This document shows positions 22,901 to 49,900 of a stretch of DNA of 64,000 bases, piece by piece. Made by a program: the position numbers and the translations under genes. The notes below the pieces were generated by a model, which was not told where the DNA came from, searched no databases, and saw nothing but the letters and a program-made list of their open reading frames with translations. The stretch comes from Owenia fusiformis (Eukaryota; Annelida; Polychaeta; Sabellida; Oweniidae): positions 43,743,366 to 43,807,365 of the forward strand of contig CAIIXF020000001.1 of the NCBI GenBank assembly GCA_903813345.2, given 5' to 3'. Position 1 is the first letter of the stretch. Each line of letters starts with the position of its first letter.

Positions 22901-25900
22901 CATAGAGCAGATAGCATTGATCCTCTCCAAAGCTGGCCACAGTGTTACATACTTCGTCCACACAGAGTATACTTCCTCTGAAATACTCCAGGCAGCAGCA
23001 AATGTTACCATAATTAAGTACGACTACCCAGTAAAGGATCTAACATACGATCTTGGAGAGAGTTCAATCCAGGGCCTAATGTCAATGACGATACTTGATG
23101 AAATGGAAATTATATTCAAACGAGGACAGCTGTATGACACATACATTAACTATTCAATACCTGCATATTTCTCAGAAATGAGTCAATGGAGAGGACTCAA
23201 AGCTCAAAACTTTGACTTAATAATATTTGACAGCCTGGATTTTGCATTGGGAAGGCTCATGAAAGAATATCTCGACAGGCCTGCTATACTTTGGTCAAAT
23301 GCTGGATATGAAGTCCATTATGACAATTGGTTGATGCCATTCCCTGTATCATACATACCAAATTTATTCATGCCATACAGTGACCAGATGAATTTCGAAG
23401 AACGAGTGATTAACACATTTTATTATGTTTTATTACAGTATCATTACATTCCATACTGGCGAGATATGGTAGATGAAAGTCTGGCAAAAGTGGCTGATAA
23501 GCTTGGACTTTCACGTGATATCAATCCTGTTCTCAATGATGCAGACTTGATTTTTATCCAATCCAACTCAGCATACTTCTACCCTCGCCCTATTATGCCT
23601 AATGTTATTCCTGTTCTTGGACTGAAAGACCGAGATCATAACCCAATTGATCAAACATATGTAAATTTTATAGATGGTGCTGATGATGCTGGTTTTATTC
23701 TTTTCACATTTGGTTCAATGCCAAAGGGAATGGATGAGAAACGCAGAGAAATATTTGCTACTGTGTTTGCCAGACGAAAACAACGGGTTTTATGGAGATA
23801 TGGTGGCCATCGTCCAAAATCACTTGGCAATAATACAATGTTATCACCATGGTTACCACAAAACGATCTTCTGGGGCATCCAAAATTGAAATTATTCATC
23901 ACTCACTGTGGAGCATCTGGTTCAGCTGAGGCTGTTTTTAATGGAGCATCTGTTATTGTATTTCCATTATTTTATGATCAGAGACATCACTGTGCAATTC
24001 TGACACAACGTCATAAAATGGGTTTAACTTTATCATATGCTGATGTGACAGAGGAGACATTATCAGCAGCATTAGATGAGGTCCTAGGCAACCCACAATA
24101 CAAGAAGAATGCTGCAAAGGCAAAGAAACTAGCCCGAGACCAACCCATCAATGCTACCTATACCATACAGTATTGGTGTGAATACATTATGAAGCACAAA
24201 GGCGCACATCACTTGAAATCAACTGCCACGTTTGAACTGAACTTCTTCCAGTACTTCTTGCTAGATATACTACTTCTAACTTTCATAATTGTAGTGATCT
24301 TCTTGGCTATCCTATATTGCACCATTAAACATGTGGTAATGTACTTATGCAAGTCAAAGAAACTGAAGACTGCATAAGTTCACGAAAACCCATCTAATCA
24401 AAATTTCAACATATGGCAGTCAATGAGGGAATACAAAATATGGTTAGCGAAAAAATGTTCACATTAGGGGTGTTCAGATTAGAGAGGTGTTTGGGCTAAA
24501 CAAGTTTTACTGTAATTCTTTATTTTTTGGATCAGATGATTAAAAACAGTTTAACAACCCGTAATAGGATTCTACCTCACATATTCTAAGTACCTCAGTA
24601 CAAAAATGAATGTACACACTCCTGATTTATGTCAGAAGCCTATTATCAGTTATGATCCCAATATGAAGCTCCTGAAAAGGTGTAAATGCCCTACACTCGT
24701 AAAAATCATTTTTCATATAATTTTTATTATAATTCTATTAACATATTTTAATGAAGGGTTCTAATAATTATCTAAAATAGTCTAAATACTGACTCAAATG
24801 CCTGTTACTACAACATATGGCTTCTTTTATTCAAATTTTCTAAAAAAAATATTTAAAAAAACAACTCTGATCGACGGGTTGGAGCAATTGATGGGGTGGA
24901 GCAAAATGATTTCATTAAATATTAAAAATAGTACCTTTAACAGTAGGACTAAGAATAAGTTTTTTGCATATGAAAGAAATAGTCTGAAGTATGTATTTTG
25001 AATTTTCCATGTGTTAATTACAGAGAATACAGTAAAGTCAATCATTTTCAAAAATACCTTGTTTGATGTTGGTAGTAAAGGCTGCCCTTCCAGTGACAAG
25101 ATTCCAAGTTTTCAATGTTTTGTCTTGACCTACGGAGAGTGCAAGCTTTCCACTTGGATGGAAAGAAACAGCATTAACAAAACCCCTGAAAATAGAGAAA
25201 TCATATCTTGTAATTTTACTGGAATTATGAAAACCATATACTTTCCTAACATAAATTACTGCTGAATAAAAAAAAATCCTTTGAGTAGGTGTGATACTAT
25301 TATTTTGCCCTCCAAATTTTTATTGCTACATGCTTTATTTCACATTAAAATGAAAAAGGAAAATATCATGGCAATAAACAAACCACAACTACATAGAGCA
25401 AACCATATAGATCCAAGTTAATTGAGGTTATGTTTGTTTATTCATTGCGACCATGCTTCATTGAATGTCAACAAAATGTTAATTACTTACATCTGGTCAT
25501 AAAATAATAATAAAATAATTCAGTTAATGTGAAGTTAATTTATTTAGTATCAGCGGATCTTAAATTCGCAAGTCGTGCAGTTTTTGGAGACTCATGCTTA
25601 GCTAGGATGAGAATGACCAATAAGAGACATATGTTTGTTTTAGCAGCGACTGTACACCTCATCATCATTACAAACTTAACTTGTGAAGTCCAAGGCTTAA
25701 GTAAGTACATTTTAATAATGATTTAGGGTGAAATAATCCAAATCAATTTTGTTTAAAGGTAGTATCAGATCTAGCAAACTTGCGAGAATGTATCACTAGA
25801 CTTGTCAATTCTATTTTCCTAAAATCACCAAAGTGTTTATTTGATTTGAGGAAAACTTAAGATTTTTAAAATTATGTATTAATTTTTCTATAAGTATGGT

Positions 25901-28900
25901 TACCATATTTATTATTTAAGAGAATTTAAACATTTTCCCCCATTTCTACAATTTGAACATAAACAACTTCACTTCTAATAAATAGATTGTTAGTCTCAAT
26001 CAAAAAGCAATCAAATGGATTGGTACCACAGACAAATCTTACTCAAGATGTTCCCTGCACTTCTCAACAAAAAGTTATAACAAAATGTTGATGTTACAGA
26101 TGGATGTGAAATATCTCCCAATAAAACCATAATCTTTGGGAGAAAATGGTGGTCACGACCAGATTTTTGTATCATGTGTAAATGTACAAGAAAAGAAGGC
26201 TTGAGTTGCAGATACTATAAAGGAGGTAGAAAAAAATGCAGATATGGGTGTCTCCATGGCCCCGTAATATATAATGTAGGATCTGAAATAAGTAGAAATG
26301 AAAAGCGTGTGTGTGAGTGCACAACAGGCAGAGTCATAAAATGCTATGGTAAGCAAAGTACTTGAGGATATTTAAAAACAGTATGTTCTTCATCAGAAAA
26401 TTGAATTGCACAAGGAATTAGATCTAGCAAATAATGATCATATGTGATTTTATTACCATGATAGTATTTAGGACATTTCATGATATCAATGTATATAACA
26501 TGACAGGATTGATTTACATAATTTCATAAAGACAGATCTATGTGTTTTCATTTTAGAAAGAGGCCAATTTGATTGGATCAAATGGGCACCTTGGAGTGAA
26601 TGTGCTAATTGTAAAACACATCCCTCTAACCGCAAGGTGCGTCATCGCATATGTGTTGATACACTTGGAAAGGAGGTAGATGCTGCTCTGTGTGAAGGAG
26701 ATGCAAGAGATATAGAGCAATGTTGTAATAGAGGTAACCTCTAATCTGTAAATGATTGCTCCATTATTGCTCCTATCAATTAGCTGGATATATCTACATT
26801 TTAACTCATGGCAAAAGATTGGTTCAATACATTTATAATCTTTGAAAATCCTGAGATTTAAGATCCCATTCTTTTTTGTCTTTTAGGAGAATTCCCTTGG
26901 GTGATTTCATTAACTGATGAAAAAATAAAACACTTCTGTGGAGGAATTATTCTTTCAAATCTATGGATCCTCACAACTGCACAATGCATATGTGCATGGA
27001 GTCAAAGCAGCTGTTGTTCAGAGCAATATCAATTGAAGTAAGAACCTTTCCATTTTATCCATTTCTATTGAATTTGAAACGAATGAACACTATATAAATC
27101 ATAAATCTGTACAGTCACAATCTAATATTTATCATCTACTCTTCCTATCCCTTCAATAAATATTTGAAATCATTGTAGTATCATGTAACCATACTTTCAA
27201 GATAACTCTAAATAATGGCGAATTCCTGCTCTAGACAGCCATTTTGAATTTTCACGAATCAGAAAATCAAAACCATAATAATACCATGTGATCTACTCTG
27301 AAATTCCTTCAATTTGAGTATAATATAGCCTTACTTTTAAGAGATCAGAAAATAATTATGAAATCCCATATAAGGGGGCCATTTTGAATCTTACTAGGCC
27401 CGAATCAGAAAAACAATACAATATTTGCAATCTACTCTAAATTGCCTTTCATTTGAGTATAATGAAGCTATACTTAAAAAACATCTAAAAATTAACGCAA
27501 ATTACTGTTTTCTCAACCCCCCCCCATTCACTGTCCCTGGGGGTCAGGGTGAAAAACATGGGATATATGTTAAATAGATAGATGTTTTGAATATACTTCC
27601 AAAATTTGCTAAAACTCTCCCCATTTTTAAAGCAGCAGCCATCTTGAACAATTTTTTTTGCATAAAACTATTCACCAATATACATCTTTCCGCTAAATAT
27701 GAAGAAAATCAGTCAACTAGTATTCGAGACAGACGGACGGACAGTTGGACTTCTTATAATACTGACTGTCGGACTGACTTACTAACTGACTGACGGATGG
27801 ATAGACGGACGGATGGAGGGCTTCACTATATCCCTACTGAACTTCGTTCGTTGGGATAATGAGATATACCCTCACCAATTACAAGCCTCCATGATGTTAT
27901 AGTTAGTTTTAGTTAGTTACATACTTTATTGTCAAACTATGATACATAAATTATACATCAACTGACACTTTAAGAAGTGTATGAAGTTGTTTTAGTGACA
28001 AAAAAGAGAATTCAATAATAACTATACATATTGATAGCTTATGTATGCATCTTACTTTATGGCTAGTGGTGGTGGGTTGTGGCTGCCAATGTGTGTTAAC
28101 TCTATTTTGGTTTAGGAAAATGTATGGATGAAAAGGTAGATGAGGTGGACAGTATAGAATTATGTTTCAGCAATTAAGTTTTTCTTTCTAATTATTTTAA
28201 ATTGAAGTAAAGAAGGCAAAAATCTGACGACATGATCAGATATAGAATTCCAGATTCTTGGACCCTGTACTTTGATTAAATATAACCCAATTTTTGTTTT
28301 GTAAGCCCTGTCATGTAAATCATGACTTCTTTTGGTAGGATAATTGTGAAAATATTTATTTTGATAAAAATAATCATTATATAGTTTTGAATAAACAGGT
28401 TCCTGGTAAATACAGCAATAGACAGAATTTGAAACTTTAAATTCATACACCTGGTTTTCAGGTAAAATGTTGTATTGCTTAAAGAAGGTGCTGAATGTGC
28501 CATTCTTGGCTGGTTGTCTAATATTCCAATTAATCTCTTTTGAAATAGAAGTAGGGAATGCAGCTCATTTGTATGAGCATTGCTATTATTAGGAGGCCCC
28601 ATCGGGGGGCCTCCTATTAATTTTGTAGATATTATTCTTTATTATTATTATTCTTTATTATTATTATTTATTCTTCCCCCCTCTTTTTCTCCTACTTCCA
28701 ACTACCTTTCAACCATCTTTTACATGCACCTTCCAGGGACATTGGCTGAACTTAGCGGGAAAGAATTTTTTATCTAGGTCAAGGTCACAGGTCAAAATCT
28801 AGGTCAAATCAAAGCTTTTTTCCAGTTTCTCAAATCCTGACACTACATTTCAATATTTTTGCCTGAATTTTTGCATACAGATAGATATTAGTATTCTATT

Positions 28901-31900
28901 AGTGTTAGCCTTTTGCCGTCTAAACAAATATTTAAAACTCATCTACAAGTTCTCAGGATTCCAAATCTGACCTTACTTTTGACCTTTGACCTTTGGTTGA
29001 CCTTCAGTGACCTCCGAAAGGTCAAAAAAGTTGATTTTTCAAATCGATTTTCTGGATTCAAATTTAGGTATATTTATTCACAAAAGACCTTCTGAGGTCT
29101 AAAAAAGTAAAATTTGCGAGGTCAAAGGTCAAGGTCATCAAACGAAATCACAAACTGTGTTTTCTAAGTTTCTCAAAATTGGAGACTACAAATCAATTTT
29201 TTTTACTGAAAGTCAGAATATATATTCCTTTAAAGGTTCTACACATATTAGCAATTGACAATTTATTAAAATTTTGCTCCAGTTATGAGATATTAGAACT
29301 CAAAAACTGAAAAAAGTCAAATTTCGAAATTTTTCAAGGTCAAATTTCAACTTGCTCTAAATTGACCAAACTTTTTTTTAAAATGCATCTACAAGATCTC
29401 AGGAACTCAAATCTGACCTTCGTTTTGACCTATGACCTTTACTTGACCTTCAGTGACCTTCGAAAGGTCAAAAAGTTGATTTTTCAAATTGATTTTCTGG
29501 ATTCAAATTAAAGTTTTTTTAATCAGAAAAGATATATTGAGGTCTAAAACAGTAAAATTTTCAAGGTCAAAGGTCAAGGTCATCAAACGAAATCACAAAC
29601 TGTGTTTTCTTAGTTTCTCAAAGTTGGAGACTACAAATCAATATTTTTAAATGAAAGTCATAATATATATTCCTCTACTAAAGGTTCTACACATATTAGC
29701 AATTGATTATCTATTAAAATTTGGCTCCAGTTTTGAGATATTATAGCTCAAAAACTGAAAAAAGGTCAAATTTCGGAATTTTTCAAGGTCAAATTTCAAC
29801 TTCCATTAATTCGACCAAACCTTTTTTAGAAATCATCTACAAGTTGTCTGGAGTTCATATATGACCTTGTATTAGAGATTTGACCTTTGGCTGGCCTTTG
29901 AATGTTCAGAAACGAATATAGGGCCTCCGTAAGATTGCTTGCAATCTTAGATCGTTAGATCTCTAGTTATTAATTATATGGCCACCCCAGATTGAATTAC
30001 AGTAATTTATATGTGAGTATATCAGGGAATTATAGATTGCCAAAAGACTTGTTTTATTCAATAGGTGGCGAATCTTATATAAGAGACCAATTGTTCTAGA
30101 TATTTTGCTTCTATATGTTCTTTCCAGGTAATATGTTCATCAACAATCACACCTAAAAAGTTGATAGATCTTACTCCTTCAATTTGTTTCCCGAACATAT
30201 CAATTTCAACATCTCTAAAGATTTGTTGTTTCTGTTTATTGAACAAGATAAATTTTGTTTTAGAATAGTTTATTGACAATTTATTTGCTTTGAACCAATC
30301 ATCCATAAGATCAAGTTCATCATTAACCTTTTCTATTAGAGATTTCAAATCTTTATCTGAGGCCAACAAATTAGTGTGGTCCACAAATATTATGCTTTTA
30401 AGAACATTTGAGACTTTAAACATGTCGTTTACATGTAATATGAATAATATCCGCCCAAGGACTGAGCCCTGGGGCACACCGCGTGATATACTTTGTAAAT
30501 CAGAGTCAATATTGTTATATGATACAATTTACTTTCGATCTTTTAGATATGATTTAAAAAGAGATAGCTCAGATCCTTGAATTCCATAAAAATTTAATTT
30601 ATCTAGAAGGATTTTATGATTAATGGTGTCACAGGCTTTAGACAAGTCTAAATAAAAAGTATAAAAAGTACCAAGCAAATATTCATTGTTCTCCAGCACA
30701 TGTCGTATGTTTTCAACAAACGTTAAGATTGCCATAAAGGTAGAGACATTTTTCTGAAAGCCACACTGTTGTATTATAATATTTCATTTTCTGTGATAAA
30801 ATTACAAAGCCGAAAGTTAATAAGATTTTCTAGAAGTTTAGAAAAAACTGGCAAGACTGAAATTGGTCTATAGTTTGAGAAATTGTCTTTATGAGCTTTT
30901 TTGAAAATTGGTGTTATTTGAGCTTTTTTGAGTTTATCTGGGAAAACTCCCCATTGAACGGATTTACAGTATTAAATATCAAAAGTAAAGGATGTAGTTC
31001 ATTTTTTGCATGTTTTACAATAATTGGTTTAACATTATCAAGAAATGCTGCCTTATCATTCAAAGTTTGTATCAATAATGACAATTCTGTTTCATCAACT
31101 GGTGTTAAGTGAAATCTATTTTCAAAATTTCTAATATTACAAATATATACATTTGGTGTTCTGTTTGACTCTTAAATTCAAGAGCTTAATTTCAATCCAA
31201 TTGAAGAATGAGTTGAATTTATTTATCAACTTTTTATCATTTACTGCATACCATCAACCAGAAATTCGTTTTGAACCACTGTATGAAGTTTTTTTCTACT
31301 TAATATGTCAGAGATAATATTCCAGGTTTGTTTAATATTTCCAGACGCAGTTTCAAATTCATTCCGATGGTAGTTTTTCTACAGCTCTCAAAATAGCTCT
31401 GAACCTTGCTTTATATATTTTATAGCTTCTTTCATTTTTTTCACTAGGAGTCTTCATAAATTTACGATATTGATTATTTTTTTGCTTGGCTGTGATAATT
31501 CCATTTGTAATCTATGGCTTAGAAGTATCAACAAAAAGTTTCACTTTTTTTAATGTTGGGAAGTTTAAAATGGTTTAAAATCATTAATTTACTGAAAATA
31601 TACTTTTAACGTTTTCAGCCCAGAAAATTGTCCCCCAATGAAAAACTGGCGAGTGGCTGCTGGTCAACTGAAGTTAAATTCAAGGAAGAGCCAAATCAGG
31701 AATATAATTGAAGTTTTTATCCATGAAGATAATAAAGAAGCTACCAAGATACAATGGAATGAATCTCAACCTGATATTGCATTGGTAAAACTAGACCGTC
31801 CCCTCCAACTTAATCCTGATATACAGCCAGTTACGGGTATTTTACCAACCAGTCTATGCACAGGAAAAAGTAATGCAGAGTGTCAAACATATATCAAAAA

Positions 31901-34900
31901 TTACACCCTACCTAAGTTCTGTGAGTTGGCAGGATGGGGTGCTTTCAGAAAAGATGGTACAAGGCATATTTATTTATTATTCATTTGAATACATTTCACA
32001 ATCTAAACCAATGTACAGGGTGGTAAAAAAATGGCAACCCTACATTTTCCTCGATATTTTTCATATATGTAAATCATTCAATATCAGCCTACAAAATTTC
32101 AGGACCATCAGGCTGATAGTCACAGTGTTACAGTTACAGCACTTTAAACAACATGCTCCAAGTATGGCCATCATTGCGCTGTAGACAAACCTGCGAAAAT
32201 TCTCAAAACCCTGACTGCATTCCTCAGCAGGTATGGCCTAAATAACACGGATGATCTCCCTTTTGAGGTCTGCTATCAGAGGTTTACTCGACCTGGTCGC
32301 ATTTGCGACCAGATTTCAGTACTTGCAACCAACTTGTAAAATCTAGTGGTCCTCAATGCGAGTACACTATATTAGGAAGCATTATTCACAAGATTTGATA
32401 AACATTTTTACCTTATCTGATGGTGACTAAGTCCAAAGTTGTCAGCATTTTCTGACTGAAATTTTATTTTTCATTCTTTTAATTATCGCCCAACAAGAAT
32501 TGTAAGGTCCAATTTGATTAGCTGACTATATTGCATCATCTGCTGTGAACCAATCAAATCCGAGTTTACAATTTCCAGAAACCGGAAGTAGCTTACCGAA
32601 AGTGATATTTTCAAAATTTATTTCAAAATCCATTGACATCCACCTAATTCTTCTTGATATCTCATTTTTTACTTCCCCATATTTGAAGGAAAATTAAGCT
32701 CTTGATCCCACTGGATTTTTACGCAAATATGTCCACAGGAATTCCAAGTGATGAGTCTTAGTCGCGTCAGCATTAGTTTGAAAAAGAAGAAAGAAACCAG
32801 TCTTGTCAGATTATTGGAAGCGAGGTACATGTAATCCCTAGTTTATTCACTCAAGAAGGAAATTCAATGAAATGTACATCATGCAAACCGGCATGTATAA
32901 AGAGGCTGCTTCAATTTGTGGCACTAATAATTTCTTGATTTTTTATTTTTTTCGTGGGACCAGTAACAAATTGAAATGAAGTGGTCCTACTTGGCGACTA
33001 ACATTTCTCCAGGACCACTTCACATGAATTTTTACTTTTACTGGTCCTAAGGACCACTACTCAATTTTAAGGACCAAAACCTCTGTCTGCTATAGTCCTG
33101 AGGTCATTTTTGTACACCTTATCTTTGGAATATATCCCCAGAGGTAGAAGGTCATTTTAGACGACACATGCAGATTTGCTTACAGTGCAATAGTGGCCGG
33201 TGGAGCATGTTGTTTAAGATGCTGTAACATTGTAACTGTCAGTCTGCTGGTTATGAAATGTAGTAGGATGGTAGAAAATTGAATGCTGTACAAAAGTGAC
33301 AAATATCAGGGAGTAATATCTCACAATAACAAAGATATGAGGAAAACAGGGGCAGGGTTGCCACTTTTTTGACCACCCTGTACAAAAGAAAAATGTTATA
33401 CACATATTCAATATCAATCTGCATTCTGAGAAGAAATCTGTTCATTTTGAACTTTTCAGGAATTTTGAAAGGGAAGTTAAAATGGTCAAAGGTCCTTGTA
33501 ACTGCAAGTGATGAAAACTCCATAACAACCAATATGCCATCATCTAGAATATGGAACCCATGTGAGGTAAAAACAATGTTGGAATAATAACCCAGATGGG
33601 AGTAGGTAGTTGCCAGTTTCACCACAAGGTGGCTAATATGAGGCAGATATAGTAGAAATTTTCTTAAACTTGAATATTCATCAGTCTAGTCTAGTTCGAA
33701 TATCTCAATCAATTTATCTGTTTTCAAAATCAAATGCAACATTTGAGACAAAAACATCTGACTTGAATGACTTGAAGACTTCTACAAATGCCAGTTTGAA
33801 ATACATGTATATTGTAACATTATCAATTTACAGGGGGATCAAGGGGCACCACTGATGTGCAAGCCTGAGGGCAGCAATTCTTCTGCTGTTGTTGTGGGAA
33901 TTCTGAGCTTTGTCGAATATGATTGTAGCAAATTTACAAATAGAGACACTTTCCACACACCTGTATATAAACATCTGAATTGGATCTTTAAACACATTAA
34001 TAGTAAGAGATATGTCCAATTAACAACAGCTGTGGAATAACAAAGTTAGTTTCATTAAGGGGTAAATGATGCTTTCATTAGCGCATAGTGTTGATTTTTT
34101 TACTATTCAAGTGAAACACAAATATAAGCAACTTTCGTTAGATGAGGGGATGGGTCAAATCATTAACTTTATTTTTCCATGACTGTTGATAATTGGATCC
34201 CATCCCAAACAGGATTAATTGTTTATTTTGTTTATAAATACAGCTCAATATCTGTTAGTTTTTCAATATTTCTCCAAGTTATCAGGGCTTCAAAAATGAC
34301 TGTATATCCAAGAGCAATTACATATCCATTTATTCATCCAATTTTCTGAAAATGTTTAAAAATAAATACATGAAAATCAATTTATAAAGATGAGTAACAA
34401 TGCTTTTCAATTCCAACAAATATTTTATGTACATGTACATACAGTACCTACCTTTTTACTCAATCGGGGTGAACGAATCCAAAGAGAACAATACTTCTAC
34501 TTGTGCGCTGTGCAAGATTTCCAATAGCTTTTCGTGTTTACCGAGAACGAAAGATGTTTGTCCACCATTTTGAATGATACTAACTGGTATCAGGGTCATC
34601 AAGCTATGGAACAGGGGTTTATGATGATAGATTGGGTTACTATAGCTTGCAATGTTAAAGGCGATTGAACTATGTTATAAAACAACTTCCAGTACATTAT
34701 GATATTTAAAAGTATAAATTTTTGAAAATACATATAAAGAATCTTCGCCCGCAGGACGTGTAATTTGAATGCTTGAGAAGAACGCAAATGGGTACTGGCC
34801 CGGTGTTGCAATAGTAGCATTTAAAAATCTGTTCCTCTCGAGATTTATGGTCTTCTGAAATTATACTATTAATTGGTGTTGTTGCATCATTGCTCAAATC

Positions 34901-37900: not shown

Positions 37901-40900
37901 ATATGACTAGTTGTAGGAGTTGAGCTCTTAAGAATGTTTTTTCTTGTATTTCATATTTGCTCTTTGGTCTTTCCCCTTTGGCTTGTATACTTCTATATTA
38001 ATAACCTGACAAATCAGAATCACTTATTTTCTAGATTTAGTTCAGAAATTTGAGATAATAAAACAAGTAAAACAGTGGTATATTCTTCAAATTCATGAAT
38101 ATAGGAAGTACATGTAATTTAACCATTTTATACAAGCTTGCGGTGTATTTGTTTTTTTGTGTTATGGAAAATAGCCAATAATTATACAACCAACCAATAC
38201 AACATTCCCTTGTATATTATCCAGATAACATGCCATCTAAATCATGTATGGACAACATTGGGATATGTGGTGAACATGGACAATGTAAGAATGGTGTCTG
38301 GTTCTTCCAATGTGTCTGTGATCCATATTATTCAGGAGAACTTTGTGATGTGAAAAATGGTATATATAGCTAATAAGTATAAAAAACAACAACAAATAAA
38401 GTGGAATACTTCTGTAAGTGGAACACTTCCATGAGTAGAATACATTTCCTAGTCCCCATTACCAATTTATTTACATTTTTACTTAACTTCTGTTAGTAGA
38501 ACAACTCCAAATTGGACCACTTCTTTTAGACACCAGAGGTGTTTCACTTGTACATATTTTACTATAGTGAGTGTAAGATTGTATTTATTGAACAATATAA
38601 TTATTTGAGAACATATACGTATATCTGGGTCCTGATTGTAATCTATACATGAGGTGGAAGAAGGTCATGAAAAAGACAAAATCTTTGAATCATTGGTTTT
38701 TGCTGAATGGTAAATCTGACATATCTATTAATTTAGTCAATGCATGTAACTCAAGTTAATTTCCACACTAATGAGGGGAGTGTATGCAATGATAGTTTCC
38801 GGGATAGTTTCCAACAGAAGCGATATGTATTCTTATATTTACAGACCAAATCTGCCCAATGGATTGTGGTGGGTATTTGCTGGGTAATAGAACAACAGCA
38901 TGCCTGATACATGAAGGGCATCAAGCATGTGAGTGTCCCAGTCAAGAAGTGGCAGATATAGGATGCATCCCAGTTGAAGGATCACATCCTGTGTATTCTG
39001 GTGCATCTAAAAAGTAAACTTCCTGGGAAATGGTTCAACAAGATAGAACAGAGACATTCAACTTAAATATTTACACAGAGCCTAAAACTTTTCATTTCTT
39101 GCTATTGTAATTGTTTTTTATCTCTGTGTTAATTATAAGTTACTTTAATACAGACACGGGAACAAGAGTTCATCCCCTTCCCACTCACTATGTATAACTT
39201 AGAAAAAAGACAGGCTCCTATCTCGGGAAATCTAAGCCTCTACTTTAATTGCTCATATCTCTGTCACTGAGTTGTGTAATGCATTATGTTTTGTCCCAAT
39301 GCAAGGTTAAGACATTAATCCTATTTATGGTAACTCACCAATTCTTAAATCAGCATAATTGTGCAAATAACATTGGAAATGTGACGAAAAAACAATCAAT
39401 TTTGCAATCACGACGTCCTTTTACAGTGACCTCTATAATATCCACGACGAGTGTCTCATTATTTTAAGAATTGTATTTGGGTTGCTCGGTAAAAGCCAGC
39501 TGGACACACACCCTAGAGATTGACAGCTATTTCGTAGATAAGATATTTATATACATAATCTGAGAATTTTAGAGTAGATCATTGGACATATGGTGAGATT
39601 GAGCTGTTAGAGAAGAGATTTGGATGTTTACGAGGTCAGCCTGTATTTTTTTACATTAGCGATACAGTGACTGGGGGGGGGGGATTTAAATCTTCCTGGG
39701 CCTGTGTACTTTAATTTACTCAATTATTTAATTGTATGTGCTGTGTAGATGACTGTCTAATATTCAATATGAATATTCTGTATGGCTATAAACAAAAACT
39801 TAACACCATCTATTTTTATGTTCTAGAAACATTATGCAATTTTGTCAATTAAAAATGACTACAAATATCTAAATAAAATAAAACTTTGAAAACAATTTTG
39901 TCTGATTTCATTTCAATGTTAATTTATGTGTATACCTTTTTTCAGTAACCAAAAGAAAAGTCAGACATGATACAGGGTGGTTAAAAAATGGCAACCCCGT
40001 CGCTATGTATCTTTGTCATTACACAAAATAACTCCCTGATATTTGGGACATTTGTACATCATTTAATTCCCTACCAGCCTCCCAAATTTTATGACCATCA
40101 GACTGATAGTCTCAATGTTACAGCACTTAAAACAGCAAGCACCGGTGGCTAATATTGGACTGTAGGCAAACCTGCACACGTTGTCCAAAATGTCTGTACC
40201 TGTCTTGATCTGTTGGGATATAGGTAGAGTGTACAAGAATGACATCAGGACAATGTAGACCTCTAAAGGGAGATCATTGGTGTCATTCAGGGTCATTGAC
40301 AACTTAAGTAGGTTTGTCAGCAATGTGATGGCCACACCAAGAGCATGTTGTTCAAAGTGCTGTAACAATGTGACTATCAGTCTGACGAAATATGGTAGGC
40401 TGACAGGACTATTGAATGTGTAAAACATAAGGGAGTAATTCCCTAAAATAACAATGAAGGAATGAAGTATGCTAATTAAGGTGAAAAATGAGCTTAGATG
40501 TAAAAATTCATTTTCCTAGGTTAAAGGCTCTGCCAAATTACTAAATCAAACAAAGAAGATCATGGCATCTCAAAACTGATAAGACATGAAAAGATATACA
40601 GTATATGTAATTATTCAATACCTAAAGAGTAGAAAATTCAAAATATAGCTCCACCAGCACAATGGTTAATTAAATGCAATCTACCCTCAAATAAGATAAA
40701 AAATATTCATGAAAACATTAACTAACCAAAAAATGCAATTAGAATTAATGACATCCTTATTCTATGAAACGAAGTATTGTATTTTTTTCATTCATAGTTA
40801 GCATATTAACTTATTTTGAGAAACCATGAATAAATCAACCACAAATTCAAATAACAATGAGTTCCATCTGGGCATAAAACAATCATGATACATTACATTA

Positions 40901-43900
40901 ATATTCATCCATTGTGAATCAAATTATAAAAAAGTATCAGTTGATGTTTTTCACAAGTCGAGCAGTTCCAAAATACCACCCTTAAGATGATCATGTATTA
41001 CTGGAGTTGCCTGTTTGTTATAGCAGCTACTGCACTGATAAGCTTGGGTAAGTAAATGAAGTTGCATTTGGGAACATTCATGAACATTCTTGTGAATCAA
41101 GACCATTATGAATATGCATCAATAATATTAATATTCAACCCTTATTAACTCCTAAAAATTCAGCTCTAAGCTAATATAAATCAACTTAGAAAAATCGAGT
41201 CGGGGCAATCTGCGCGAGATTCGGTTTTTACTTGGTTCGGTTTTTCATTAAAGGAAGTACTTCATTCCCATGATTCAAAGTGCTTTTCTGCCATCGGTTC
41301 GGTTTAAGTTTGTACAACACACGTCTACAAATCCGGGGCAGGTTGATATTGTGTCATTTCATTTGTTTTGGGTGTATACTTTTTGTTTTGACACGAAACA
41401 AAAATATTTCCGCACTATATGGTGCATCATGGGTAGGGACTGCTGTGAAATAATGAACGTAAGTGACATCTATCTCAAATTAAATGTTCTTATAAGTTAT
41501 TAATTGCGCATGCGTTACAATAATTTGAACCAATTAAAGTGCTGAATTTAATGCGCATGCGCTAAAAACCGAACCAAAAAATGGAATCTCGCGCAGATTG
41601 CCTCTAGTGGAAAAATCTTAATATTCTAATAAATTTATATTTCTTTGTTGTCACAATTTTATTCAAAGTGTTGTCTCATTCCATGTCTATTTTGATTCAG
41701 ATCAAGCATGACTCATGTAAATCTTTACTCTAAACCCAAGTATTTCCTTTAAAGGGAATGCGAAGTTTCATGTTCTAATTTACACGCTGACTACTTATAA
41801 CCATCATCTATCACTTCAGCTCACTCATGGGACACGTCGTGTTTGAACTAACATATAATTCAAGTTCAAAGTACCCATATCTGGATCGCTGCGGATGCCG
41901 CCATTGTTGTGTATCAATGACGTCATTGATGCCATAAAATTGATGCCTGGGAAGTGTCGCTATATAATCACGTCATACTCAGATCGCAGAAATAAAACAT
42001 ATTTCACTGATATTTTATAACTGTTTCTGTCCACTTAACATTGTTGCCGCATGTTCATGTCCATATCATATTATATTATATTATATATATTTGGAAAGGT
42101 TGTTGCAATGTCTTTTTTCAAATGTTTGTATTTATTTTCTCCAATGTGATATAGCAAGTTTATAGGCTAGGTAGAAAAATCATTAAACTTATGAGATATC
42201 GGCTGCCCGATTCGCAATTTAACTGGTTTTGACTGAAAAGTCATCGCATTATATTCCACTTGAAAAATATCCACTAGAATTATTATCCCATCGAACGAAG
42301 TTCGGAGGGATTTGGGAACGCCTCCGTCCGTCCGTACGTACGAAAATAAGTGGAACTTTAAAAGCTTCAGTCACATTTGCTCAATGCGACCACACGTCGA
42401 TCGTATTTCCCTGAAATCAGTAAATTTCTGCAGCAAACATATGAAAACTACAGTCGACTTAAAGCCACCTTGCGGTCTACGTACACAGCATATCCAGTTT
42501 TTACAGGGCGTAGAGTCGGGGTTAAAACTTTTTCTTTCCTGTGGTCACCGTAGATATCAACAAGCAGCAGCCAAACCGTAGGTCCCACGACGACCGTACG
42601 TCGGGTTCACGGTCGACTTGCGGCTGCCTTTGGATTTCATAGGTTACAATTGACCTTTCCGAACCATAGAACCCCTTGTGGATGCCTTCAAGAAAAACTA
42701 CGCACGTCAGGGCCGCCCTACGCTGATCGTGCGTCATCATTTATCAGCCGTACGGAATCGTAGTTTTTCCTCATAATCAAGATACGCCGTACAGCTATCT
42801 TAGCAAATGTGACTGCTAAATTATCTGACTGCAGAAATACTTAGGCAACCGTAGAAATTCTACTTCCCACAGAAATGAAAGACCGTACGGTCCCCGTAAA
42901 AATGTGACATGAGGCTAAGAAGGATAGTAATTGAATATGGTTTTAAAATTTAATTAAAAAATTTTCTTCGAATACTTGTTTTAAAGATAAACATAAACGC
43001 AATGAATATTAAAGTACGAACACGTATTTTTTGTAATGAGACTAGCAAATTAAATCATCACCGAGATTGCATTCTTGGAAATTCAAGATGGGTTGGTTGA
43101 ATTAATTTTATTACGTTTTATTCAAATAGTTTGCATTCGCCTGATAGAACTAGCATTCTCTGTTCGCATTTAGGGCTAGACCTAATAAAAGTTAAAAAGT
43201 CACGAATCCCAGATTGTTTCAAGTGTAAATAAAGAATAAATGTAACCTGCATTCCATGTCTAGATAGGTAAAAAGCAATTCTGAAAATGCCGGCGTTAAT
43301 ATTCTATTGAAATCGTTCTTTATTATGGGTGGTATATACGTATTCTTTTATTTGGTTTTGGAACGACAACAACTCGGCATTCATTTTTTGATTCAAAAAT
43401 GGCGCCACAAAACTTTTGGAATGCCAAGGCATCAATCTGGCATCAATGATGTCATAACAATGTCGTAAAGAACCACTTTACGGTTGAAATGGCAGCTCCG
43501 TGGTCCAGTTCATATGCAAAACCCGGGGCTCAATAACAATTACAAGGATAATGATAGGACAAAACTTTGCATTCCCTTTAAGTGTTTGCTCTTGATGAGT
43601 CCATTCAAAAAGGGGTGCAAGTCTATTTGAAAAGGGGTGCAAGTTTTTAAAACAAACTTACAGTTTTATATATGAACAAGGTGAACACTATCATGCCAAA
43701 AATCCAAAACAGCTGTCTCAGAATTTACAAAGCATGCCCAAACTATTCACTTCTAGATTATCATAATATCATTTGCATATCATGAAATAATTTCAAATCA
43801 ATCTGTCAACCTGGGAACTGGTTTACCTGCAAACAAGCTGACAAGAAGAAGTGAGATGCACCAACTGCAAATTGTTTCATTCTATTAATTTTTTCCTCTG

Positions 43901-46900
43901 TAATATGTCAAGTTAATTTTTTTCATCTGATGTAAAAAATTATAAAATCTAAATTCCAACACATTACTGTATAAGTGGTAATTTTGCCTAATCATTTAAT
44001 TTGCCTATTGCCTAAGTTTTGCCAGGCTGGGAAAATTAAATGTCGGAAATATTGTCTTCATAATGTTATCCAATGGGAAGTTTCTTGTCATTGTAATTTT
44101 AAAAATGTTAGCAATTTGCAACACTAATTATTTACTATGAATGTATTAAGTTAAAACATGGATTAACATGAAAATCTTTCAAAGATTTTTGCAGGGTTAA
44201 TTGCCCACAGGTTGTAGGGGCAATAGGACTTTAACGATCCGAGTATTTAAACATGGGAACATGCTATAGTACTGTATTTTGATCACATCATACTACACTG
44301 ACCATTCACACTATACCAATTCTATCAACTATGATATAAAAATAAGGGACATCTGCCTTGTATAACATTTTGTATTATTGTTCATAATTTTTTTATACAT
44401 GTAGTAACATGATTAAATACAAAAATTGAATGCAGATCTTGAGGTAGATATCATATCTTAATACGAATGACAATTTAATTCAATCAACCCCAAAAGAATG
44501 AAATTTAATTTTCCTGTTATTTTCCCTTTCCCTTATATATCTAGACATGCACCAATCATTGTAGAAGCCTGTGAAGTACCTCAGGGTAAAAGCATTGGAG
44601 TAGGACGTAAATGGGTATCGAAAAACAAATGTGTAAGCTGTAAATGTACAACTAAAGGCTTGAGTTGCAAACGTGGCAAAAAGACCAATTGCCGATCAGG
44701 TTGTCTCGAGGGCCCAATAATCCATGATGTTGGATCCATAATTCAACAAAATGAAACACATAGCTGCGAATGTATGGCAGGAGTTTACATAGATCATATT
44801 GTATGCAATGGTAAGCAGAGAACATGCAAACTATTTGAATATATGGTTCAATATCTTGTAGAACATGTTCTGGCAGTTGGGATAGTGGTACCCCTCATAA
44901 TTTCATCTTTACAATTGCAATTTACAATATAAAAACCAATGTCAGACATGTAATTCAATGATTTAGTTCAATATGTTCATTTATACATTGTATATTTAGA
45001 AAAAAGCTCACATGGTTGGATCAAATGGGGACCTTGGAGTGAATGTGCTAATTGTGAAACACATCCTTCTAACCGCAAGGTGCGTCATCGCATATGTGTT
45101 GATACACTTGGAAAGGAGGTAGATGCTGCTCTGTGTGAAGGAGATGCAAGAGAAATAGAGCAATGTTGTGGTGATAAAGGTTTGTTTTTGTATTTCTGTC
45201 ATAAAGTGGAACAATTCAGGACTATGTACTTCATGCTAATGCTAGCTTTCCCATTTTTCTCCTTTATTTGTTTATTAGAAGAAGAATTCCCTTGGGTGGT
45301 TTCCATATCTAACAACAACAGACATTTTTGTGGAGGAGTTATCATCTCAGATGTTTGGATCCTCACAACAGCTCACTGTTTGTGTGAATGGAAGTACAAC
45401 TGCTGTACAAAGCAAAAACAATTTAAGTGAGGGATCTTTCACAATTTTTGGCAAAATACATAAAACTCTATGGAGCGAGTATTTAGATAGACAAGTTTTC
45501 TAAATGATAAACAAATCACTGTTATTCAACTGTTTCAGCATATCGAACTGCCCCCTTATGACAGACTGGCGTGTAACTGCTGGTGTGCTCAAACTGTCTT
45601 CCAACAAAGGTCAAATCAAGCAAATAAGTGAAGTCATTATACATGAAGACAATGCTCCATTTGATTCTGCCAACCCGAAACAATCTGGTCCTGATATTGC
45701 ATTGCTAAAACTAGACAGTCCCCTACAACTGAACACGCCTGATGTGCAACCAGTTCAGTTACCAACCAGTCTATGTAAAGGAAAAACTGATGCTGAATGT
45801 CAAGCCCACATTGGAAAAGAAATGAATTTCTGGTCCTGTCAGACGGCAGGGTGGGGCATCAAAGATGGTACAGTGTATATGCTTAACTAATCTATAACCT
45901 TAAATTTAATTGCATATATATACATTAAAGTACCAGAAGTATCTTGGTTTGAACTAAAAACTTTAGTAAACAACAATTAAAATGGTCATGATAGCTATCC
46001 GGCTCCATTCCCAAGAATAGCGCTGATTTCGCTGTCACCTGATGTGTACTTTCACCTATTTAGTCAAAAAACTATCATCAGGGAAGTTGAAATGGTCAGA
46101 GGTAATTGCAGAAGAAAGTGATGAAACCTTTATAACAACACTACCCTCTGGAGGATTTAGCACCACATGTCAAGTAAGAGCCTAATACTAATTAGAAGTA
46201 GTGTGCCTTAAACCTTTTTAAACCTTTTTAGGCCATATGTTCTACACTTATATTATCTTGGCATTGGTTAGCGCAACATTTTAGAGACTCTTCACTATAT
46301 ATATTCAGATACATGTTAAACTTTATCATATGTTGGCGTAGTATACCTTTTCTTGAAATACAAACTCTCCATTTACATTCCTGTAGTCTTGAATAAATGT
46401 GAGTGAAACACACGAGTATAGAAACTAATTCTAAACACTACTCAATAATGTTAATTTCCAATAATTTTATTAAGTGTTAGCATATGACTTAATGGGGTAG
46501 AATACTGACATACTAAAAAGAACTGATACCTTGAATTTTATACATTTACAGGGTGATGGTGGGGCACCATTAATGTGTCAACCTGACAATGGGCCACCTG
46601 TTACTGTAGGTATTTTAAGTCACATTTTCCCAGACAATCCTTGTGGCGTATCTCGTGATACTAGGACATATCATACATCCATACCAAGTCAACTGAATTG
46701 GATTCTCAAACACATAACTGGTACAGCATTTAAACATACTTTTACACCTAGAAGTTTATGATACCAAAGTAAGCCGCTACTTTAATCAAGAATGGGTCTC
46801 ACTTAAAGTTCTTATATCTAAAAGTATCATATACAGTACTAGAATTGATCTCAAATTCTTGGGAAATCATATCCACAAATGGTCAGGGATTTCATATTCC

Positions 46901-49900
46901 AGAATGGAGGTATGGTAGTTCCAGTGATTGTGATTGTGACAGAAATGAGCAACAGAGGAGTGTTTTCCTGCAATCCAAGTCCTGTGTTTTCCCAGAGAAT
47001 GGAATAACCGCAAAGGCTGTAGAGGAAATGTATCAGCGATTTAAGGATGATTGTTACATTCTCCAGAAGAAATCATGTATCTGCTATGGTATGATTTAAA
47101 GTTTTATGAATTACATGTATTTTTGGTTTTCCCTAATGTTGCTCTAATGCTATGTCATCAAAATAAATTTGGAAAAGTATAGAATACAAAATGAATGAAT
47201 GTGAACAATAAGGGTATATAACATTTCTAGAACTACATTGAATTTTTTTTAGAAAACCTAAATTCTAAACAGTGCGAGGATAACCAAGGCATCTGTGGTG
47301 AACATGGACGATGTATTGACTATGTCTTTTTCCTCATCTGTCAGTGTGATCCATATTACTCGGGAGAACTTTGTGATATGAAAAATGGTATGTAAATGAA
47401 GCTCTCTAAGATTGTAGTTTATTTGGAGCTGAACTGCTTTTCTTAGAAATGTAACAGATACAGGGCGACACAAAAATGACACTCACTAATTTTCTCAATA
47501 ATTAAGGGAGCTTAGTGATTTTTTGTGTAGATAGAGTGTTCAATAGATAAATGTTTATTGAACTTGGATAGCATTAATGACTTTGAGCTTTAGAGAAATC
47601 CTGTTTTCTGTCTAGGCATACTCTCAGTGAAATTGTCAAAAAATTTATTATTTACAGAAGTAAGCTGCCCGATGTATTGTGGTGAATATTTGCTGGGTAA
47701 TAGAACAGTAGAATGCCTGATACATGAAGGACATCAAACATGTGAGTGTCCCAGTGAAAGAGTGTATGATCTACTATGTATACCAGTAGAGGGATCGCAT
47801 TCTATGTATACTGGTGGTTCTAAAAAGTAAACGACTTCAACAAGAGAAATAGTCATGAAGAAAGAACAGAGATGCTTAACTGACATGTCATGCTCTACAT
47901 AGAGTCTAAAACTCTTGAAAATGGTAGTCTGATATGAATAAAATAAAGAAATCTCTGTATTAGAAAAGGATGTTGGTTAATTTGATTGTGAACATATTGC
48001 TTTAAAGTGTCCTTATAAGGACAGAGGGCCTCCTATATTCTTCTTGTCATTATAATTCAACAGAACCCAAAATAACAAAATATTTTTCTTACTTGTGACC
48101 TCTTAATGTTTTAAGGCACTCCCAGTTTTTCAATGACCATATACATATGCTTCCATCTTCACTGCAGGAGAACATATGACTGTTCTTGTAAAACTGAAGG
48201 CTGCTAATTGTCCCTGAAATAAATACATGAATGATCAAACAGACATATAATCTACTAAGATCTAGATATATTAGACATATTGGACAAGCAAACAGGCTGA
48301 CAAGTTTGCAAACAAACCAATGAGACAGACAAGAATGACACAGACCAATGATATATGCAAAGACAAAAAACAAACAAACTAATGAGCTCTAATGTGACAT
48401 ACAAGCAAGTGAAAAAACAGACAAATGGGACATACAAACAAACAAATCACTGGAGAAAAATAAAGGAAATAAACAAACAAAGAAAGAGGGCTCCAAGTGA
48501 GATAAATGAAAAATAAATCAATGAGATTTACAAGAAAGTAAAAACATAGATCAATGGGAAAGAAACATAACAAAACTGGTAGGCCATACAAGCAAGCGGA
48601 GACATTGGCAAATGAGACATAAAAACGAATAGACCATACACATAAACAACCAACAAAATTAAAACCTATTTAATATGAGTACAGAGTATAATACATCTAA
48701 TTTAGGACAGGAACAATTGGTCAAATTAAAATAATGAGGTAATATTTAAACAGGAATTGTCACATAGGTCAAATATAAAACAGTCATTCTTGAAAGATGT
48801 CACCGTATGACTGTATACCGTCATAATGTCTATTGCTGTGAATATTTATTCATCTATTCACCAATATGCATCTCCAGAATGTATAGTTTGGGTTTTAAAG
48901 ATATATATTAGGTTCCAAAGCAATATGGATGAAGGTGTTTCCATTAAAGTCTCAGCTCATGTTCAATATATAAACTTGCACTGACCTTCATGGTGTAGTA
49001 ATGAACCAAGTTCTACATTGGACTTGAGATTGAAGATTCTTATAGTCTCGTCTGTACTTCCAGAGGCCAGCGTACCATTACTGGCTGCAGCCACACATTT
49101 GATACAGCCACTGTGTGACTTATCAGTGAATGTCTGCTGTAGCTCATATACCTGGAGAACATAGAACTTATTATTTTTGCATAAATATTACTGTGTTTCA
49201 AATAGGTCTTTCACTTACACATATTTATGGTATAGTAGTTTAAATACAGGGTAATCAAAAACCACAACCCTGTATTTTCCTCATATCTTTGTCATTTTAG
49301 GAAATTACACCCTGTTATTTGGCACATTTGTATTTCATTCAATTTCGTACCATCCTACCATATTTCATGACCATCAGATTGATAGTAATAGCAATGTTAC
49401 AGCACTTTGAACATTATGCCCCAGTTGTGGCCATCATTGCGCTGTAAGTAAACCTGGACAAGTTGTCAATGACCCGACTGCATTCATAAGGTACAGTCTG
49501 AAAGACACGTATGATCTCCCTTTGAAATACCCCCACAGGTAGAAGTCAGATACGGTCATTTTGGACAATGTGTGCAGGTTTGCCTACAGCGCAATAGCCG
49601 CCACTGGAGCATGTTGATCAAAGTGCTGTATTATTGTGACTATTCCATTCAGAGCATAAACCTAATGAGAGGATAACTGTCACTAAAGGAGAAGTTGTTT
49701 TGAAGGGATAGCCAGCCTCCAATTCATCAACTTCGATTTTGGACTACTTAATATATACATGTATAGGTAAATATTATTCATTCTTTTATATTAACATTAA
49801 TGAAACGAACCGTTTCGGTAACCAGCATAATTGAGGCTGTACCTTAAGGTTCAGCTGGAAAGTAACATTTTGGTAAAAAATTGCTATACCTGCACATGTT

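What the first reader, a model, noticed from the sequence alone, without database searches (positions are those of the whole stretch)
25607..47830. Three secreted pseudoproteases, each with a different replacement of the catalytic serine
The serine boxes read [18 protein letters not shown] and GDGGAPLMC, with Gln, Ala and Gly where active trypsins have Ser. The His box varies from intact (TTAHC, gene B) to TTAQC and TAAIC, and one domain also has Asn for Asp. Seen in sequence: the motifs. Known: insect clip-type homologues with GDGGxP and no cleavage site act as cofactors of prophenoloxidase activation. Inference: these genes form a small non-enzymatic family with a VWC-TSP1-pseudoprotease-TSP1-EGF layout that I do not recognise, possibly a defence or coagulation scaffold.
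Basis: partly seen in the sequence, partly recalled or inferred. Interest (0 to 1): 0.78.

Follow-up and report, generated by a model that had tools for sequence, protein, structure and literature searches.

The report
Worm protease family's dead-enzyme branch
Two neighbouring genes of a marine worm encode secreted proteins built like trypsin-type proteases but with the cutting site destroyed; they are the inactive branch of a larger, mostly intact protease family, so they probably work by binding rather than cutting.

Summary
The motifs are real: [33 protein letters not shown], with His boxes TTAQC, TAAIC, TTAHC and one Asp-to-Asn. They are three domains in two + strand genes, not three proteins: gene A (852 aa, 14 exons) holds two pseudoprotease domains in tandem, gene B one. 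Every modelled exon border is GT/AG and gene A against gene B gives dN/dS about 0.35, so they do not look like decaying pseudogenes. Two exact, unique primer matches plus assembly size point to the annelid Owenia fusiformis. A separate tandem, with intact first and degenerate second domain, occurs in two other genes. Most likely role: non-catalytic partner or decoy for active relatives; this mechanism is inference. VWC and TSP1 labels stay under Pfam cut-offs; no expression data were available. New variant of a known kind (S1A serine protease homologues).

The parts
25607..25700 (+). gene A exon 1: start codon and signal-type hydrophobic stretch
   Evidence: model; GT donor; no signal-peptide program was run
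26100..26348 (+). gene A exon 2: VWC-like Cys-rich module
   Evidence: VWC 17.5 bits, under cut-off 27.6
26557..26733 (+). gene A exon 3: TSP1-like module; core 138 of 142 bases identical to gene B
   Evidence: (TSP_1 16.2, under cut-off 21.6)
26887..27037 (+). gene A pseudoprotease 1, exon with His box TTAQC
31619..31956 (+). gene A pseudoprotease 1, exon with Asp box DIAL
33460..33566 (+). gene A pseudoprotease 1, short exon ending in CE
33834..34002 (+). gene A pseudoprotease 1, exon with GDQGAPLMC
35232..35391 (+). gene A pseudoprotease 2, exon with TAAIC
35550..35881 (+). gene A pseudoprotease 2, exon with NIAL (Asn for Asp)
36378..36484 (+). gene A pseudoprotease 2, short exon ending in CR
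36943..37111 (+). gene A pseudoprotease 2, exon with GDAGAPLMC
37460..37657 (+). gene A second TSP1-like module (no Pfam hit)
38225..38359 (+). gene A EGF-like module
   Evidence: EGF_2 30.7 bits alone, cut-off 22.1
38845..39017 (+). gene A last exon, Cys-rich, with stop codon (no Pfam hit)
40987..41047 (+). candidate signal exon of gene B ([20 protein letters not shown]), strong GT donor, phase fits
   Evidence: ranked first among the candidates listed; unproved
44565..44810 (+). gene B VWC-like module
45000..45179 (+). gene B TSP1-like module
   Evidence: TSP_1 19.9, cut-off 21.6
45279..45426 (+). gene B pseudoprotease, exon with intact His box TTAHC
45539..45867 (+). gene B pseudoprotease, exon with DIAL
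46064..46173 (+). gene B pseudoprotease, short exon ending in CQ
46552..46720 (+). gene B pseudoprotease, exon with GDGGAPLMC
46903..47088 (+). gene B second TSP1-like module (no Pfam hit)
47253..47387 (+). gene B EGF-like module
   Evidence: EGF_2 21.1 full length, under cut-off 22.1
47658..47830 (+). gene B last exon, Cys-rich, with stop codon

Best explanation
Shown: two secreted-type mosaic genes whose trypsin-like domains have lost the catalytic Ser (Gln, Ala, Gly), in two of three domains also His, and in one also Asp; they are one clade of a family that is mostly intact elsewhere in the genome. Inferred: the common ancestor of the three domains lost Ser first (the state still seen in gene B, which keeps His and Asp and has the shortest branch), and gene A, after an internal duplication of the protease domain, lost more. 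Inferred mechanism: the proteins keep the binding surfaces and the flanking modules of their active relatives and act without cutting, as partner, scaffold or decoy for the active family members or for the substrates, activators and inhibitors of these; gene A, with two dead domains in a chain, would be a two-site version.
For: Motif losses and clade (100/99). Constraint after loss: dN/dS 0.35-0.37 for each gene A domain against gene B and 0.35 for the other modules without the first TSP1-like exon, at dS 0.77-1.07. Same modules in relatives with intact boxes: L014 has VWC-like, TSP1-like, intact protease exons, second TSP1-like and EGF exons in this order. Outside the window 21 of 22 readable serine boxes keep Ser. 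A second tandem, intact first domain plus degenerate second domain, in L013 (TSSSC, DAGSP) and L007 (TSAYC; serine box not found) shows that dead domains are kept beside live ones in this family.
Against: No expression, binding or activity data. The dN/dS is averaged over long branches of paralogues and includes time before the loss, so it does not by itself prove constraint since the loss; gene A's domains do have longer branches than gene B (0.78 and 0.54 against 0.15). Partners are unknown. The order of losses rests on parsimony; the pairing of gene B with A1 is not firmly supported (82/79, 93/83). Intactness of the relatives is read from motifs only.
Confidence: 0.45

Rival explanations
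1. Immune cofactor or opsonin: the proteins assemble on microbes or clots and help to activate a proenzyme, as insect clip-domain serine protease homologues do.
For: Gene B has Gly for Ser with His and Asp kept, the state the abstract of PMC10540698 gives for the prophenoloxidase cofactor homologues. Secreted mosaic build.
Against: No clip domain found by Pfam; no activation-type cleavage motif before the domain, while cleavage is needed in the insect cases; Gln and Ala, not Gly, in gene A; nothing ties the genes to immunity.
Confidence: 0.2
2. Ligand or structural glycoprotein: the dead protease fold is a receptor ligand (as in hepatocyte growth factor, recalled) or a component of matrix, mucus or the worm's tube, independent of any protease network.
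For: VWC-like, TSP1-like and EGF-like modules are common in matrix and signalling proteins (general knowledge); duplicated domain suits multivalent binding.
Against: Close relationship to family members with intact protease boxes in the same genome makes a link with proteolysis the simpler guess.
Confidence: 0.22
3. Genes on the way to being lost, with little or no function.
For: Loss of two or three triad residues in gene A; long branches of A1 and A2.
Against: Open frames over 23 modelled coding exons, intact splice borders, Cys pattern kept, dN/dS about 0.35.
Confidence: 0.08
4. Residual or unorthodox catalysis, for example in gene B where His and Asp remain.
For: TTAHC and DIAL intact in gene B.
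Against: Ser is Gly; no activation motif seen; residue two before the GD-box Cys is Thr, not Asp.
Confidence: 0.03

Closest known systems
Insect clip-domain serine protease homologues (prophenoloxidase cofactors; abstracts of PMC10540698 and PMC6901238)
   Same: Secreted S1A-fold proteins without catalytic Ser; gene B shares Gly for Ser with His and Asp kept.
   Different: No clip domain by Pfam, other modules on both sides of the domain, no activation-type cleavage motif recognised, tandem domains in gene A, Gln and Ala replacements.
Tenebrio SerP11 'TSP' (passages of PMC11172050)
   Same: Trypsin domain with thrombospondin type 1 repeats.
   Different: Listed there with H, D, S intact, K|IIGG activation site, two TSP and no VWC- or EGF-like part; a normal trypsin.
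Other members of the same family in this genome (L001-L014, L016-L020, L026-L031)
   Same: Same exon division of the protease domain, same short segment before the serine box, TSP1-like exon upstream; L014 with the same module order as far as read.
   Different: Ser kept in 21 of 22 readable boxes; seven of the 22 instead lack Asp194 (GFSG or GYSG).
Hepsin, plasma kallikrein, factor XI (best PDB matches)
   Same: Chymotrypsin fold, sequence similarity across most of the domain.
   Different: Active enzymes; the window domains lack the triad and the Cys pair at 168-182 (numbering recalled).
Vertebrate pseudoproteases such as haptoglobin and hepatocyte growth factor (recalled)
   Same: Non-catalytic S1A domain in a secreted mosaic protein.
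   Different: Kringle or CCP modules instead of VWC-, TSP1- and EGF-like ones.

Membership tests
S1A trypsin-like domain (Pfam PF00089) | Profile match over curated cut-off | tested here: met
   150.6 and 86.3 bits against 20.6
Active S1A serine protease | His57, Asp102, Ser195 | tested here: not met
   Ser replaced in 3 of 3 domains, His in 2 of 3, Asp in 1 of 3
Active S1A serine protease | R/K-[IV]xGG activation site at the start of the domain | tested here: not met
   Modelled His-box exons of PP1 and gene B start at (E)EFPW, of PP2 at [10 protein letters not shown]; no such motif
Active S1A serine protease | Cys pair 168-182 and Asp189 for trypsin specificity | tested here: not met
   The short exon has one Cys in each of the three domains; residue two before that Cys is Asn, Thr, Thr. 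Numbering is recalled.
Insect clip-domain serine protease homologue | N-terminal clip domain | tested here: not met
   No clip family among Pfam hits at E up to 1 (full length) or 10 (non-protease exons alone)
Insect clip-domain serine protease homologue | Gly in place of catalytic Ser | tested here: met
   Only gene B; gene A has Gln and Ala
Insect clip-domain serine protease homologue | Cofactor for prophenoloxidase after cleavage | not testable with these tools
   Needs protein
VWC domain (PF00093) | Curated score cut-off | tested here: not met
   17.5 and 14.8 against 27.6; gene B exon scores slightly higher for TILa (17.5 against 27.0)
TSP1 domain (PF00090) | Curated score cut-off | tested here: inconclusive
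   First module 16.2 and 19.9 against 21.6; the L014 relative reaches 22.2. Second module: no hit in A or B; 18.4 in L014
EGF-like domain | Curated score cut-off | tested here: met
   Gene A 23.2 full length and 30.7 alone against 22.1; gene B 21.1 full length, just under

The most novel reading that the evidence does not exclude
Owenia runs an extracellular protease network of its own in which catalytic and dead paralogues with the same docking modules work together, dead domains having been made at least twice (the window clade and the second domains of L007 and L013); gene A is a double-headed pseudoprotease that bridges two partners. Such a network would be an annelid counterpart, made independently, of the insect protease and homologue cascades.
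Probability: 0.2. Interest if true: 0.7.

Novelty: new variant of a known kind. Interest (0 to 1): 0.42.

Why it matters
Pseudoproteases of this fold are known best from insects and vertebrates. Here one genome holds a family with the same modules in which some members look intact, one clade has lost Ser, another set of second domains has lost His (and Ser where read), and a further clade lacks Asp194. That gives active and inactive paralogues side by side for testing how a protease turns into a binding protein. If the dead copies regulate the live ones, this would be a regulatory layer not described, to my knowledge and in my ten searches of open-access papers, for annelids.

Tried and rejected
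Three separate proteins: rejected; the exon phases join PP1 to PP2 in one frame, with no module exon recognised between them. A single-gene alternative in which PP1 ends at the stop at 34038-34040 cannot be excluded without RNA.

Clip-type membership: rejected. 'No cleavage site' as a shared trait with insect cofactor homologues: rejected on two abstracts.

A2 as a member of the other dead clade (second domains of L007 and L013): rejected by AU test, p 0.00018, on the 24-row tree.

Pseudogene decay: not favoured.

Structure: AlphaFold2 on the VWC-like and second TSP1-like exons with two-row alignments failed (mean pLDDT 35.9 and 41.5); no fold search was run.

Species: no COX1 match in the assembly, so no mitochondrial identification; the elav1 forward primer gave no match with up to two mismatches, perhaps because it spans an intron. 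A close relative of Owenia fusiformis is not excluded.

Rows dropped before counts: L035 (D exon only) left out of the tree; a short D fragment of L005; the His-box exon of L032 (TTVVC, no D exon found); the L022 serine box (Ser kept, owner unclear, perhaps L003); the serine box at L008 1356 (another trypsin gene); partial serine-exon repeats in L011 and L013 and the second half of the L014 one. His was not parsed by script in L018, L028, L031 but reads TAAHC. Boxes of L001, L005, L016 and L008 were assigned by position from separate stretches L021, L023, L024, L025. Boxes were not found for L003, L007 second domain, L012, L030, L031.

The module scan used some of the relatives as seeds, so its counts are partly circular; one search found the first ones from window exons alone.

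Papers: ten searches. None listed a description of this architecture by title or abstract start; most listed papers were not opened.
Full report
WHAT IS THERE. The window is part of a 498 Mb assembly of 525 contigs. On its + strand lie two neighbouring multi-exon genes. Gene A runs from 25607 to 39017 with 14 coding exons and gives 852 aa; gene B runs from 44565 to 47830 with nine coding exons (558 aa), plus a candidate signal exon at 40987-41047. Every internal border of the models is GT/AG. Outside the protease domains the joins are in phase 1; inside them the order 1-2-1-0-1 is the same in all three domains. That two diverged genes share borders and phases is the best evidence, short of RNA, that the exons are joined.

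THE LOST RESIDUES. Ser is Gln in PP1, Ala in PP2 and Gly in gene B; His is Gln, Ile and His; Asp is Asp, Asn and Asp. The domains begin directly at EFPW or, in PP2, after KDEETK, without an R/K-[IV]xGG motif. The segment between GWG and the serine box is short, with one Cys; the usual 168-182 Cys pair is missing (numbering recalled).

DOMAIN NAMES. In full-length scans Pfam gives Trypsin in both genes and EGF_2 over cut-off in gene A only. VWC and the first TSP1-like module are under cut-off; the second TSP1-like module and the last exon match nothing. One relative, L014, passes for TSP_1 in its first module (22.2 against 21.6). I therefore write 'VWC-like' and 'TSP1-like'.

WHICH ANIMAL. Two primers published for Owenia fusiformis genes (syt1 forward; gene part of elav1 reverse; passage of PMC8111721) match exactly and once in this genome; a third, elav1 forward, does not match within two mismatches. 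A passage of PMC9977687 gives 505.8 Mb in 12 chromosome-scale scaffolds for that species. The window is very probably from Owenia fusiformis; a close relative is not excluded.

THE FAMILY. A search of the genome with the gene B protein gave 78 matches, the strongest outside the window on other chromosomes. I fetched 20 stretches, then 15 more. Searching them with the window exons and profiles made from the finds showed protease domains divided into exons in the same way, with a TSP1-like exon upstream in many: TSP1-like first module in 19 of 35 stretches, second in 7, VWC-like in 3, EGF-like in 2, last module in 1 (stretches are short and some relatives were seeds, so these are neither full nor independent counts). 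L014 has the order VWC-like, TSP1-like, protease, TSP1-like, EGF-like with TAAHC, DVAL and GDSGGP. So the layout is not special to the dead proteins.

LIVE AND DEAD. Of 27 domains outside the window placed on the tree, 22 have a readable serine box: 21 keep Ser. Thirteen of the 22 have His, Asp, Asp194 and Ser; seven have GFSG or GYSG in place of GDSG; L010 has Asn for His; the second domain of L013 has TSSSC and DAGSP. The second domain of L007 has TSAYC, its serine box was not found. Parsimony on the tree needs at least two changes for Ser, one for Asp194 and four for His. Intact here means motifs, not activity: a K-I[NA]GG activation motif was recognised in only 2 of 21 family contexts outside the window (L008, L009, read by eye, exon starts not fixed), and in the 17 candidate short exons that look convincing (of 18 domains with a candidate among 21 examined, whose script asked for a Cys next to the end) no Cys appears in the 30 residues before the last one and no Asp at the place of residue 189. 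So the family as a whole is an unusual branch of S1A.

TREE. The three window domains form one clade, 100/99, in both trees. The second domains of L007 and L013 form another, 100/100 and 100/99; joining PP2 to them is rejected (AU p 0.00018, 24-row tree). Hence tandem domains arose separately in the two lineages. Within the window clade the order is not firm.

SELECTION. Gene A against gene B: dN/dS 0.37 (PP2) and 0.35 (PP1), PP1 against PP2 0.45, other modules without the first TSP1-like exon 0.35, with dS 0.77 to 1.07 (Nei-Gojobori). The first TSP1-like exon is different: 138 of 142 core bases identical, one synonymous and 12 other changes over the exon, no similarity in the introns, which suggests recent gene conversion confined to that exon. 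Its ratio above 1 rests on 13 changes and I draw nothing from it.

MECHANISM. Shown: loss of catalysis-critical residues, in frame, in two genes that share modules with intact relatives. Inferred: a binding role. I favour partner or decoy within the family's own protease network (0.45), before a matrix or ligand role (0.22) and an immune cofactor role of the insect kind (0.2). In insects the Gly-for-Ser homologues act as high-mass cofactor for prophenoloxidase activation and need cleavage (abstracts of PMC10540698 and PMC6901238); gene B resembles them in Gly for Ser but lacks clip domain and a recognisable cleavage motif.

NOVELTY. S1A homologues without activity are a known kind, common in insects: 125 of 269 S1A-related proteins in Tenebrio are annotated as putative non-active (passage of PMC11172050). 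New here, as far as ten open-access searches show, are the module order, the double-headed form and the annelid family with separate losses. No eukaryote sequence collection other than this genome and the PDB could be searched, so homologues elsewhere may well exist.

Noticed in passing
25186-48092 (- strand intron): Both genes lie inside one 22,907-base intron of a WD40 gene on the opposite strand (exons 49151-about 48991, 48213-48093, 25185-25058). By memory the protein resembles PAK1IP1.
   Followed up: partly
26581-26722 and 45024-45165: Core of the first TSP1-like exon is 138 of 142 bases identical between genes A and B while introns are not alike: probable gene conversion limited to the exon.
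   Followed up: partly
22854-24377 (+): Long single open frame matching UDP-glucuronosyltransferase (Pfam UDPGT E 5e-87).
   Followed up: no
30058-31171 (-): Broken reverse-transcriptase frames inside the intron between the His and Asp exons of PP1 (one frame matches RVT_1).
   Followed up: no
36048-36359 (+): Tandem repeat in an intron of PP2 that reads as repeated [12 protein letters not shown] in several frames.
   Followed up: no
28931-29888: Two adjacent direct copies of about 515 bases, 87% identical, in the long intron of PP1.
   Followed up: no
L013 5808-6300 (+): The 3' part of the intact serine-box exon is followed by three further copies about 127 bases apart.
   Followed up: no
L006, L017, L018, L019, L020, L028, L029: Members with Ser kept but Asp194 replaced by Phe or Tyr (GFSG, GYSG); one change on the tree. 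Asp194 is needed for the usual activation of the fold (recalled), so these may be inactive or activated differently.
   Followed up: partly
L015 (-): Two copies of an EGF-like plus last-module pair without a protease exon recognised in the 9 kb fetched.
   Followed up: no
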